Of a DNA stretch of 64,000 nucleotides, positions 23,682-33,927 are shown one piece after another. A program made the translations under genes and the position numbers. The stretch comes from Mycolicibacterium aromaticivorans JS19b1 = JCM 16368 (GTDB lineage Bacteria > Actinomycetota > Actinomycetes > Mycobacteriales > Mycobacteriaceae). The notes beneath the pieces were generated by a model. That model was not told the DNA's origin. It worked only from the letters and a program-made list of their open reading frames with translations, and ran no database searches. Within the stretch, counting starts at the first letter, position 1. The number at the start of each line of letters is the position of its first letter. The DNA lies in assembly GCF_000559085.1 (NCBI RefSeq), contig NZ_JALN02000003.1:62001-126000 (forward strand), read 5' to 3'.

Positions 23682-23783
23682 TGTCCGTTCTCATTGAATC
23701 TGGGGCACATTTACTAGTCTGACCTGCATTGCCCCAGATTGGATGAGAATTTCGATCGCGACGTTTCTCATTGAATCTGGGGC
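23682..23783 (+). repeat. Left end of the Tn7-like element with three TnsB-type repeats
   Basis: Copies of TTCTCATTGAATCTGGGGC lie at 23688-23706 and 23765-23783. A diverged inverted copy, GCCCCAGATTGGATGAGAA, lies at 23731-23749. The outermost six bases are TGTCCG. Confidence 0.85.
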
Positions 23784-23944
23784 TACCCTGCTTCCGCGCC
23801 CGGCTGCGAGCGCAGCAGGGTAGCCGGAATGGTCTCCTGTCGATTCCGTTGGCTCGGGTACGTCTTCGGTATAACTACTGTGATCGTGTCTCTCGTGACA
23901 CACGATCATGATTCTGTGGTGCGCTCGCTCGTGTTGGTAGTTCG

Positions 23945-24094
23945 GGTGCCGGCTGCGGCCTTTGAGCACCTTGGCCACCGCCCGTTTTAGATTGTCATAG
24001 CGGATACGGGCCGGGACATCACCAAAGTGGTTGAACGCCAACACATGCCGATGCAGGAGCGCCTCCTGGCCCTGAGTGGTGAAGTTGCTCCGAG
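23945..24094 (-). pseudogene. IS21-family IstA transposase fragment
   Basis: The minus strand reads FTTQGQEALLHRHVLAFNHF, GDVPARIRYDNLKRAVAKVL, KGRSR. This is the conserved IstA stretch (family form: EAF-GHV-AF--FGG-P-RI-YDNLK-AV-KVL-GR-R). Only about 50 residues remain, directly behind the CadD-like stop codon and inside the Tn7-like element. An IS21-type insertion once entered the cargo and was mostly deleted. Confidence 0.7.
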
Positions 24095-24736
24095 CTAGAG
24101 GGCGAACGCTCCGCCTTTGATGAGGATGAGGGCCCCGATTGTGATCAGTGCAACGGGCAGAACGATGTGGCCCCAGCGTGAGAGTGCTTTGGCGATGATC
24201 GGGTGGGAGGCGAAATATCGGCCGGCCGCGCACCAGATGGCCACACCGATGAGGAACACGATGATGTAAACACCGATGGTGGCGATCGTTGAGACGGCGA
24301 AGATCGGAACGTACACGCCGATGTTGTCGCCGCCGTTGGCGAAGGTGATGACTGCGACCTGCCAGGTGCCAGGCGTCAACAGTGTTGCGGGATCATCGGT
24401 CGGCGCCGGTTGGGTGCGGCGATCCCGCCAGGCCAGCCATGCCGCCCGCAGCCCCAACACGATGGGCAGCAGCCCGAAGTACGGCAGTGCGGCTGGAGGA
24501 AGCAGCGTGGCACCCAGGAGTGCGCCGCCGACCGAAACTGCCAAGATGGCGGTGAAGCCGAGGTACTGACCGGCGGTCACTCGGATGGCTGCGCCACGAT
24601 GACCGGGCGCCTGGCCGAACATCACCGCGAGGACCACGATGTCGTCGATATTGGTGATGGCGAAGGTGGCGATCGCCTGAACGAGTGTGGCTGGGCTCAG
24701 CACGGCCAATGCGACCAGCTTCGAGTGAAATCCCAC
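24095..24736 (-). CDS. CadD-family cadmium resistance transporter
   Basis: 213 residues, about five or six membrane helices. The family signature is present twice: FAITNIDDIVVLAVMFGQ near residue 25 and VAVITFANGGDNIGVYVPIF near 130, with acidic membrane residues. A central hydrophilic loop carries RDRRTQPAPTDD. CadD/LysE-superfamily proteins export Cd(II) or similar cations across the inner membrane. GTG 24736 is the start. Next to merR but on the same strand, 138 bp away, it may be transcribed on from merR. Confidence 0.83.
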   Translation of the reverse strand: MGFHSKLVALAVLSPATLVQAIATFAITNIDDIVVLAVMFGQAPGHRGAAIRVTAGQYLGFTAILAVSVGGALLGATLLPPAALPYFGLLPIVLGLRAAWLAWRDRRTQPAPTDDPATLLTPGTWQVAVITFANGGDNIGVYVPIFAVSTIATIGVYIIVFLIGVAIWCAAGRYFASHPIIAKALSRWGHIVLPVALITIGALILIKGGAFAL

Positions 24737-24874
24737 CGCATCGGGTGAGCCTACTGCTCAGCAGGCCCCGCGCTCCCGCGCACCAACGACCTCCAGTGGG
24801 GCGGAAATTCATGACGACTGCCGGGGTCAACGGACTTGACGAAATACATGCCTCCGGTGCCACGGAGGTGGCTC

Positions 24875-33084: not shown

Positions 33085-33090
33085 GTCAGG

Positions 33091-33831
33091 TCACCACCCG
33101 GTCCCGAGGCCAATCGCCGTGTCGTCGCCAAGTGCCGCTCCTTGCAGATCGGCAACTAAACGGCCGTGCCAGAGCAGATGAAACAGTACGGGCAGCACCA
33201 CCAAAGGAGTCCCGACCGCGTGCACACCAGCCATCAACGGACGGACCCGAGCGAAGACCTCCGCCAGTTGATCAGCCAAACCGATCTTCAATACTCGCGG
33301 ATGCCGATAACCCGACAACCAACGTAGATTCGCCCGCAGCACTGGATCGAGGGAACCGACACGCAGGTAATCCCAACCGACCATCGCGCACGTGGCGGCA
33401 GACCGATCGAACACGTCCCGATCAGCGTCAGAGATCCGGTCGTCCTCACGAACGTCGACTACGACGACAGATCCATCGCGGCGCCGCACGAAGTAGTCAG
33501 GAGCATGCCGCGTGCCGTCACGCCAATGAATCCAAAATGGTTGCGACAGAACACCAACAACATCCGGATCGGCATCCAACGCCATCAACTGGTCACGTTC
33601 TACCCAGGACTCGTGACCTACATGTGCGCCGGTTGTGGCGAACCACCACAGCCCGGGAAAGTTACGCTGACCTCGAAACGAGGGGAAATTCCGCACTGGT
33701 GAACAGTCCAACTCAAACCGGGTTGCAGCACATCGGTCCAGCGATTGCCGCGTGCATCCCTCGCGGGTGTTGAACTCCAAGTCCACTGCACTCGCTACAC
33801 CTGGCCCAGCCGAAACAGCCGACGTCAGCAC
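33091..33831 (-). CDS. TnsA-like transposase endonuclease subunit
   Basis: 246 residues. The restriction-endonuclease-like core reads ESWVERDQLMALDADPDVVG, VLSQPFWIHW, RHAPDYFVRRRDG, VVVVDVREDDR. Glu and Asp of the E-D-(Q/D)xK-type site are present, with Arg where Tn7 TnsA has Lys, as often seen in actinobacterial members. The C-terminal part resembles the TnsC-interacting region. TnsA cuts the 5' ends so that the element moves by cut-and-paste. GTG 33831 is the first usable start; it lies about 20 bp inside the right-end repeats, so expression is probably self-regulated. Confidence 0.85.
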   Translation of the reverse strand: MLTSAVSAGPGVASAVDLEFNTREGCTRQSLDRCAATRFELDCSPVRNFPSFRGQRNFPGLWWFATTGAHVGHESWVERDQLMALDADPDVVGVLSQPFWIHWRDGTRHAPDYFVRRRDGSVVVVDVREDDRISDADRDVFDRSAATCAMVGWDYLRVGSLDPVLRANLRWLSGYRHPRVLKIGLADQLAEVFARVRPLMAGVHAVGTPLVVLPVLFHLLWHGRLVADLQGAALGDDTAIGLGTGW

Positions 33832-33851
33832 ACATAAACGCTAAGCCTCGT

Positions 33852-33927
33852 GCCCCAGATTCAATGAGAAAGACACGCACTTACCCCAGATTCAATGAGA
33901 ATGCCCCAGAATCAATGAGAACGGACA
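33852..33927 (-). repeat. Right end of the Tn7-like element with three TnsB-type repeats
   Basis: Closely packed copies at 33852-33870 (GCCCCAGATTCAATGAGAA), 33883-33901 (first base changed) and 33903-33921 (one A change), then CGGACA as the terminal hexamer. All three are in the same orientation and more densely spaced than at the left end, an asymmetry normal for Tn7-type elements. Confidence 0.85.

What the first reader, a model, noticed from the sequence alone, without database searches (positions are those of the whole stretch)
23682..33927. Complete-ended Tn7-like transposon with mercury/cadmium cargo in a mycobacterial replicon
The sequence shows TGT...ACA inverted ends, three 19-bp repeats at each end, and tnsA, tnsB, tnsC and tniQ on one strand with a metal-resistance cargo. 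Tn7-type elements with TniQ target selection are best described in other phyla, and those with CRISPR show how flexible their targeting is. What site this TniQ recognises is unknown. The different 5-bp flanks (ATCCT and GGTGG) show that the present location is not a simple insertion.
Basis: partly seen in the sequence, partly recalled or inferred. Interest (0 to 1): 0.75.

Follow-up and report, generated by a model that had tools for sequence, protein, structure and literature searches.

The report
Mercury transposon that hunts a palindrome
A mobile element carrying mercury- and cadmium-resistance genes in mycobacteria repeatedly inserts about 60 bases from one particular palindromic DNA sequence, which reveals what its target-choosing machinery looks for.

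Summary
The element is real. The window holds a 10,246-bp Tn7-like transposon (23682-33927) with TGT...ACA ends, three 19-bp repeats per end, tnsA, tnsB, tniQ and a mer/cad cargo.

Copies in other mycobacteria end at the same bases and make 5-bp duplications (9 exact). The flank on the tnsA side carries the exact palindrome GTCACNGTGAC (consensus about CAATWCGTCACWGTGACGAATTG) within 200 bp in 29 of 45 distinct insertions, median distance 68 bp. Flanks found after the motif was defined give 17 of 29, plus 3 of 3 close plasmid relatives and 0 of 5 distant ones. Two species carry the element at the same nucleotide of a diverged orthologous site.

The palindrome also lies at characteristic distances upstream of 12 of 24 tyrosine-recombinase genes; 6 of those 12 were loci already known to carry it. 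It may be a recombination site, which would make this a TnsA-bearing counterpart of the Tn5053/Tn402 "res-site hunters". The site's owner is unproven.

The parts
23682..23783 (+). left end: TGT terminus and three ~19-bp repeats (middle one inverted)
   Evidence: the same end bases in other copies
33852..33927 (-). right (tnsA-side) end: three ~19-bp repeats, ACA terminus
33091..33831 (-). tnsA-like endonuclease gene (NCBIfam NF033179 TnsA_like_Actin)
   Evidence: E 1.1e-86
31003..33084 (-). tnsB, DDE transposase (Mu-transpos_C, rve; sequence matches to solved TnsB chains)
30100..31015 (-). tnsC (TniB/AAA+), broken in this copy: Walker-A stretch displaced and inverted, further indels; intact in other copies
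29244..30086 (-). tniQ, 280 aa, open reading frame intact
   Evidence: PF06527 only E 0.47 for this protein but 3.5e-6 for relatives; alignments; model residues 13-142 align with solved TniQ/TnsD chains
28259..29107 (+). CcdA-like membrane protein (cargo)
   Evidence: annotation of the identical gene in NZ_AP022578; no convincing Pfam or NCBIfam match
27708..28262 (+). redoxin / TlpA-like protein (cargo)
26724..27392 (+). merB, organomercurial lyase (cargo)
25300..26724 (+). merA, mercuric reductase (cargo)
   Evidence: TIGR02053 above its cut-off
24875..25264 (-). MerR-family metal regulator (closest to CadR/PbrR, below that model's cut-off)
24095..24736 (-). CadD-type cadmium transporter (cargo)
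   Evidence: PF03596 above cut-off; TIGR00779 below cut-off
33977..34019 (.). long inverted repeat containing the target palindrome; core GTCACTGTGAC at 33993-34003, 65 bp outside the right end
23677..23681 (.). left 5-bp flank ATCCT, not a duplication
33928..33932 (.). right 5-bp flank GGTGG, not a duplication
33994..34713 (-). IS110-family transposase gene (PF02371) whose 3' end overlaps the palindrome; flank, not part of the element

Best explanation
A Tn7-like transposon whose TniQ directs TnsABC to a ~21-bp palindrome (core GTCACNGTGAC, centre mostly A or T). Insertion occurs typically 50-90 bp to one side, usually with the tnsA-side end facing the palindrome, and makes a 5-bp duplication that leaves the palindrome intact. 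Shown: the ends, the duplications, the association, its one-sidedness, and repeat use of one nucleotide position. Inferred: that TniQ, rather than another protein bound to the palindrome, does the reading; that TnsC bridges the two; and that transposition is cut-and-paste because tnsA is present. The window copy sits 65 bp from such a palindrome. It has since been rearranged (no duplication, broken tnsC as assembled) and probably cannot move on its own.
For: Exact palindrome within 200 bp of the tnsA-side end in 29 of 45 distinct flanks of at least 100 bp (distinct by their last 30 bases), distances 36-165, median 68. Flanks found after the motif was defined: 17 of 29; plasmid relatives with 78% TnsB identity: 3 of 3 at 55, 57, 68 bp. 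Of 11 duplication-verified insertion sites 10 have it (8 on the tnsA side, 2 on the other). Beyond 300 bp from the end the newly fetched flanks (repeats of one flank included) hold 5 copies in 55,446 bp, which would give about 0.8 hits in 45 x 200 bp. L036 and G197 carry near-identical elements at the same nucleotide of orthologous sites 85-92% identical, with duplications CTGGT and CTATC. TniQs only 33-39% identical to the window's occur in elements beside the same palindrome (L012, L018, L027).
Against: 16 of 45 tnsA-side flanks lack the palindrome within 200 bp: one has it at 230 bp, and two (L016 and the G197 TCTCG site) have it on the other side; the other sides of most of the rest were not fetched. 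L019, outside the 45, has a perfect duplication and no palindrome. In the first set the opposite side has it in only 2 of 17. Distances vary more than the nearly fixed spacing recalled for Tn7. Five more distant plasmid relatives lack it, as do L024, L025, L029, L032 and L034 within 250 bp. No binding or transposition experiment exists.
Confidence: 0.78

Rival explanations
1. The palindrome is the recombination (res/dif-like) site of a tyrosine-recombinase system, and TniQ senses the recombinase-DNA complex there, as Tn5053/Tn402 sense resolvase-bound res sites. TniQ would then not read the bases itself.
For: Searching 78 genomes with one such recombinase gave 24 matches; 12 carry the exact palindrome upstream of the matched part at two characteristic distances, 49-67 bp (4) or 554-640 bp (8) (one distance corrected). 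Six of the 12 were loci already fetched because they carry the palindrome; of the 18 others 6 have it. In G418 it lies between two divergent recombinase genes. Among 98 ORFs scanned near sites the commonest Pfam families are Phage_int_SAM_4 (6) and Phage_integrase (5). In 32 site-bearing loci 4 of 10 recombinase ORFs lie within 150 bp of a site against 1.3 in simulation, p 0.03 (the search profile was built mostly from these loci). Res-site hunting with cognate resolvase, 5-bp repeats and preferred orientation is described for Tn5053/Tn402 in PMC7765201 (passages).
Against: 12 of 24 recombinase genes lack it. Only 3 of 45 tnsA-side flanks hold such a recombinase within 1.5 kb, and only one of those three has the palindrome; none of 15 other-side flanks and none of four further flanks does. 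Breaks of homology between species are not enriched at the palindromes (6 sites against 3-12 at shifted positions).
Confidence: 0.38
2. The palindrome is a binding site of an unrelated regulator or chromosome-organisation protein; the element follows it because it marks safe intergenic DNA.
For: Most sites have no recombinase of this family beside them (recombinase ORFs in 7 of 32 loci). 46 of 94 sites have a second within 1 kb. In 10 of 12 assemblies of 1-3 contigs at least one site lies at 40-60% of its contig (positions).
Against: The characteristic spacing to recombinase genes is not expected of it. No regulator family is shared by the sites (TetR_N 5 of 98 ORFs).
Confidence: 0.3
3. The mismatched flanks of the window copy come from homologous recombination between two copies of the element at different sites, followed by loss of the partner.
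For: In G197 two copies carry exactly exchanged duplications, CTATC/TCTCG and TCTCG/CTATC. The same exchange of right ends between copies is reported for Tn7706 in Rhodococcus (PMC12915292, passages). L007 also lacks a duplication. The two window flanks hold parts of two different IS110-type genes (the left fragment by eye).
Against: G000 holds only one copy now, so an adjacent deletion or IS-mediated rearrangement fits equally well.
Confidence: 0.5
4. The broken tnsC is an assembly error rather than a biological rearrangement.
For: The rest of the element is 100% identical to the copy in L036, while several changes cluster in one gene.
Against: No reads were available; real local rearrangements of this kind are known (recalled).
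Confidence: 0.4

Closest known systems
Tn7706 of Rhodococcus erythropolis NI86/21
   Same: Actinobacterial Tn7-like element with tnsA, tnsB, tniB and tniQ, found on plasmids including pRhX5, with flanks exchanged between copies (PMC12915292, passages)
   Different: The pRhX5 copy corresponds to my locus L187 by plasmid name: TnsB 52.9% identical, another end sequence and no palindrome in the fetched 10 kb. The passages shown name no target motif for it.
Tn5053/Tn402 family (res-site hunters)
   Same: TniQ-dependent transposons with 5-bp duplications, often a mer cargo, that insert at recombination sites in a preferred orientation (PMC7765201 passages); TGT..ACA-type ends (recalled)
   Different: Here a tnsA gene is present; that family moves by replicative transposition with TniABQ and TniR-res (PMC7765201 passages). 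None of the element's scanned ORFs is a resolvase. The target is a ~21-bp palindrome linked at most to tyrosine recombinases, and insertion is ~60 bp away rather than within res.
Tn7 (TnsABCD at attTn7)
   Same: TnsA+TnsB+TnsC+TniQ-domain protein; 5-bp duplication; the tnsA-side end faces the recognised site, which stays intact (Tn7 details recalled)
   Different: TniQ is 280 aa, not a ~500-aa TnsD (recalled); the target is a dispersed palindrome, not a conserved gene end; spacing is variable; no tnsE seen
Tn6022-like elements with TnsF
   Same: Tn7-like element that uses tyrosine-recombinase biology for targeting (PMC10293859 passages)
   Different: TnsF is an inactivated recombinase carried by the element and targets comM; no such gene is seen here
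Tn7-like clade 2 of Benler et al. 2021
   Same: Actinobacterial hosts, TnsA/TnsB/TnsC/TniQ content; none experimentally characterised at that date (PMC8649781 passages)
   Different: Membership not tested by a tree here; the passages read name no palindromic target
CRISPR-associated transposons
   Different: No cas gene among the element's scanned ORFs; the target is a fixed palindrome

Membership tests
Tn7-like transposon | TnsA endonuclease | tested here: met
   NF033179, 289.8 bits against cut-off 110
Tn7-like transposon | TnsB DDE transposase | tested here: met
   PF09299 above cut-off, rve below cut-off; phmmer matches to solved TnsB, best 5.8e-11
Tn7-like transposon | TnsC AAA+ regulator | tested here: met
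   TniB PF05621 9.5e-17 in the intact copy L036; disrupted in the window copy
Tn7-like transposon | TniQ/TnsD target selector | tested here: met
Tn7-like transposon | arrays of transposase-binding repeats at both ends and 5-bp duplication | tested here: met
   three repeats per end; 9 direct perfect duplications in relatives; absent in the window copy
Tn5053/Tn402 family | no tnsA; carries resolvase tniR and its own res | tested here: not met
   tnsA present; none of the element's scanned ORFs is a resolvase; no recombinase of the seed family in the window
Tn5053/Tn402-like behaviour (res-site hunting) | insertion at recombination sites bound by their recombinase | tested here: inconclusive
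   palindrome linked to 12 of 24 recombinase genes, 6 of 18 among loci not seen before, but a recombinase beside only 3 of 45 insertions
CRISPR-associated transposon | cas effector genes and guide | tested here: not met
   no cas family among the element's scanned ORFs; no CRISPR-array search was run
Benler clade 2 | position in the TnsB tree | not tested
   no reference TnsB set was fetched

The most novel reading that the evidence does not exclude
A TnsA-bearing Tn7-like lineage of mycobacteria is a recombination-site hunter for a previously undescribed palindromic site of tyrosine-recombinase modules. TniQs only 33-39% identical keep the same target, and so carry metal-resistance cargo onto plasmids and other mobile DNA across the genus.
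Probability: 0.38. Interest if true: 0.82.

Novelty: new variant of a known kind. Interest (0 to 1): 0.7.

Why it matters
In the passages read of the 2021 survey, the clade dominated by Actinobacteria had no experimentally characterised member. Here the target of one actinobacterial lineage is defined by sequence precisely enough to test directly. It offers a short TniQ (280 aa) with a short, non-CRISPR, apparently protein-read palindrome, which is attractive both for understanding how TniQ acquires targets and as a compact site-specific integration system. It also helps to explain how one near-identical mercury-resistance transposon has reached many mycobacterial species.

Tried and rejected
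Hairpin or attC-like structure of the palindrome: the flanking arms are no more complementary than permuted partners (13.54 against 13.54; an earlier ungapped test was equivocal). Rejected.

Mobile gene cassette bounded by palindromes: suggestive single cases (a 745-bp unit shared by L139 and L020; a toxin-antitoxin pair between two palindromes on the M. crocinum plasmid), but breaks of homology are not enriched at palindromes. Not claimed.

A second conserved box beside the palindrome (GGNTATT, up to one mismatch): 20 of 93 sites against 9 on the mirrored side. Not claimed.

Phage origin of the palindrome: 29 matching stretches in the viral contigs, with G+C mostly below 0.60. No sign of it.

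Degenerate palindrome in the flanks that lack the exact one: of 15 tested, one (L237, 4 mismatches) stood out from its control windows; one control window elsewhere also reached 4.

Empty-site search in plasmids for the L036 and window flanks: no match. Genome search with the L036 flank: 6 of 118 genomes, only G197 along nearly the whole stretch.

Rows left out of counts: omits L032 and L034 (non-mycobacterial; no palindrome), L015 (58-bp flank) and L021, L026, L046 (end not resolved). One search counts only ends that match the pattern, drops flanks with the same last 30 bases or shorter than 100 bp, and counts an element present at one flank in eight genomes (L203 and others) once. Of 114 plasmid records with a TnsB relative I fetched eight. 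The Pfam scan used 98 of 133 ORFs listed near sites, from 31 of 32 loci. My notebook gives 57 places; the answer lists 55. It also gives 61-87 bp for the first group; with the contig end allowed for, it is 49-67 bp.

Prior print: the listings show no title or abstract start that names this palindrome or a mycobacterial Tn7-like target; only PMC8649781, PMC10293859, PMC7765201, PMC12915292 and PMC13277299 were opened, for passages. The four motif strings occur in 128 papers, of which 30 were listed, none about mycobacteria. Most subscription papers are not in that library.

No TnsB/TniQ tree against Tn7, Tn5053, Tn6022 and CAST groups was built. The C-terminal helical half of TniQ has no convincing structural match.

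Full report
What is in the window. Between them lie tnsA (NF033179), tnsB (Mu-transpos_C), a TniB/AAA+ gene and tniQ on the minus strand. The cargo is merA, merB, a MerR-type regulator, a CadD-type transporter, a redoxin and a CcdA-like protein. The window is 62001-126000 of a 241-kb contig of an unnamed 6.3-Mb genome.

Other copies and borders. A single TnsB query found 48 loci in public genomes, 28 of them in mycobacteria by record title. Near-identical copies (99.9-100% outside tnsC) start and end at the same two bases in L036, L022, L023, L007, L010, L013 and, with an extra insert, L005, and in both copies of genome G197. L008 has a shortened left end; L001 shares the tnsA side but carries other cargo.

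tnsC. Against these copies the window is identical on both sides of tnsC but not within it. The stretch with the Walker A motif is missing from its place and lies inverted a little further on, with further small indels and a deletion. Intact copies elsewhere encode one open tnsC (342 aa in NZ_AP022578). The window copy therefore lacks a working tnsC as assembled; whether this is biology or assembly cannot be told here.

Duplications. Nine copies have perfect 5-bp direct repeats: L008 GGATT, L010 GTGGG, L012 AGTGA, L013 GCATG, L016 TGAGC, L018 GAACT, L019 GATGG, L020 GTGGA, L036 CTGGT. L014 matches at 4 of 5; the window and L007 do not match. In G197 two copies 181 kb apart have exchanged repeats (CTATC...TCTCG and TCTCG...CTATC), the pattern expected if a circle carrying one copy integrated by recombination into the other. 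A like exchange between copies has been reported for the Rhodococcus element Tn7706 (PMC12915292, passages).

The target. The tnsA-side flanks share an exact palindrome, GTCACNGTGAC, first seen (13 of 23 flanks within 200 bp). In the fuller first set it lies within 200 bp in 14 of 22 tnsA-side flanks and in 2 of 17 opposite flanks. Pooled by 11 duplication-verified sites, 10 have it (8 tnsA side, 2 other side; L019 none). A genus-wide search for the tnsA-side end (396 genomes, 45 with matches, 55 places) added 29 distinct new flanks, of which 17 have the palindrome within 200 bp. Old and new together give 29 of 45 distinct flanks of at least 100 bp, at 36-165 bp, median 68, interquartile 57-86. 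Beyond 300 bp from the end the new flanks hold 5 palindromes in 55,446 bp. In plasmids three relatives with 78% TnsB identity (M. intracellulare twice, M. avium) have it at 55, 68 and 57 bp, and five more distant ones do not. Two of the latter lie just upstream of mobF with a longer TniQ of 366 and 389 aa.

Same nucleotide twice. L036 (M. lehmannii) and the CTATC site of G197 are orthologous (91.6% over 996 bp on one side, 84.9% over 238 bp on the other), yet the elements are ~99.9% identical. Both repeats occupy the same alignment position but differ in 3 of 5 bases, identical within each species. That is best read as two insertions at one nucleotide. L016 and L183 lie beside the same palindrome with the same surrounding sequence, on the same side, in opposite orientations, 65 and 55 bp away.

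What the palindrome is. A logo of 97 sites gives CAATWCGTCACWGTGACGAATTG; no hairpin arms beyond the core. An extended form (ATNCGTCACNGTGACG) occurs in 32 of 37 genomes of the genus, typically at one to a few places, and in 5 of 24 genomes of other families of the order. 46 of 94 sites have a second within 1 kb. A tyrosine-recombinase gene lies close to some sites: 10 such ORFs in 7 of 32 loci. Searching 78 genomes with that recombinase alone, 12 of 24 matches have the exact palindrome upstream at two characteristic distances, 49-67 bp (4) and 554-640 bp (8), and in G418 it lies between two divergent recombinase genes. Six of these twelve were already known as palindrome loci; of the other 18 matches, some of them identical copies, 6 have it. 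This points to a recombination site. Against it, a recombinase is next to only 3 of 45 insertions on the tnsA side (one of the three has the palindrome) and none of 15 on the other, and homology does not break preferentially at the sites.

Comparison. Tn5053/Tn402 insert at res sites with the help of the resident resolvase, in a preferred orientation and with 5-bp repeats (PMC7765201, passages). The present element behaves alike but has tnsA, no resolvase gene among its scanned ORFs, and another target. Faure et al. 2023 (PMC10293859, passages) describe TnsF, an inactivated tyrosine recombinase, as a selector; its main text has no match for 'actinobac', 'actinomyc' or 'mycobacteri'. Benler et al. 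2021 (PMC8649781, passages) call their clade 2 Actinobacteria-dominated and experimentally uncharacterised. Tn7706 (PMC12915292, passages) is the closest named actinobacterial element that I found; its pRhX5 copy is my L187, with TnsB 52.9% identical and no such palindrome. Statements on families without a call are recalled.

Verdict. An ordinary-looking metal-resistance Tn7-like element, broken in this copy, whose family has a clear target that I found nowhere in the searches listed: a palindrome about 60 bp outside the tnsA-side end.

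Noticed in passing
window 30100-31015: tnsC rearranged relative to the other copies compared although the rest of the element is identical to a copy in another species; biology or assembly error.
   Followed up: partly
L132-L135 (G197 C1:2311000-2502883): Two copies 181 kb apart with exchanged 5-bp repeats: apparently a large circle integrated by recombination between transposon copies.
   Followed up: yes
L188 and L189: More distant Tn7-like elements of M. kubicae and M. avium plasmids with longer TniQ (366 and 389 aa) both sit just upstream of the mobF relaxase gene, perhaps an oriT-proximal target.
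   Followed up: no
L139:7592-8325 and L020:20630-21373: A 745-bp unit, 81% identical, bounded by the palindrome on both sides in two species with different surroundings; looks like a mobile cassette.
   Followed up: partly
L153:6813-7653 (M. crocinum plasmid NZ_CP092363.2): A RelE/Phd-type toxin-antitoxin pair lies between two palindromes 840 bp apart.
   Followed up: no
G029, G402, G322, G285, G413, G085, G427, G421, G409, G424 (positions): In 10 of 12 assemblies of 1-3 contigs at least one palindrome lies at 40-60% of its contig, possibly the replication terminus region (contig start at oriC not checked; G052 and G416 are the exceptions).
   Followed up: no
window 33977-34019: The palindrome here is part of a ~43-bp inverted repeat overlapping the end of an IS110-family transposase gene, reminiscent of IS1111-type elements that insert at attC sites (recalled).
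   Followed up: no
L203, L205, L207, L213, L214, L220, L224, L232: A sister element (end TGTCCGTTATCACTGG) sits at one and the same flank in eight genomes, suggesting a fixed or inherited site without the palindrome.
   Followed up: no
L238 and L226: Two insertions without the palindrome have a recombinase ORF or fragment of the same family 292 and 2 bp from the tnsA-side end.
   Followed up: no
window 61906-62811: A ParB-like gene (by eye), consistent with a plasmid replicon.
   Followed up: no
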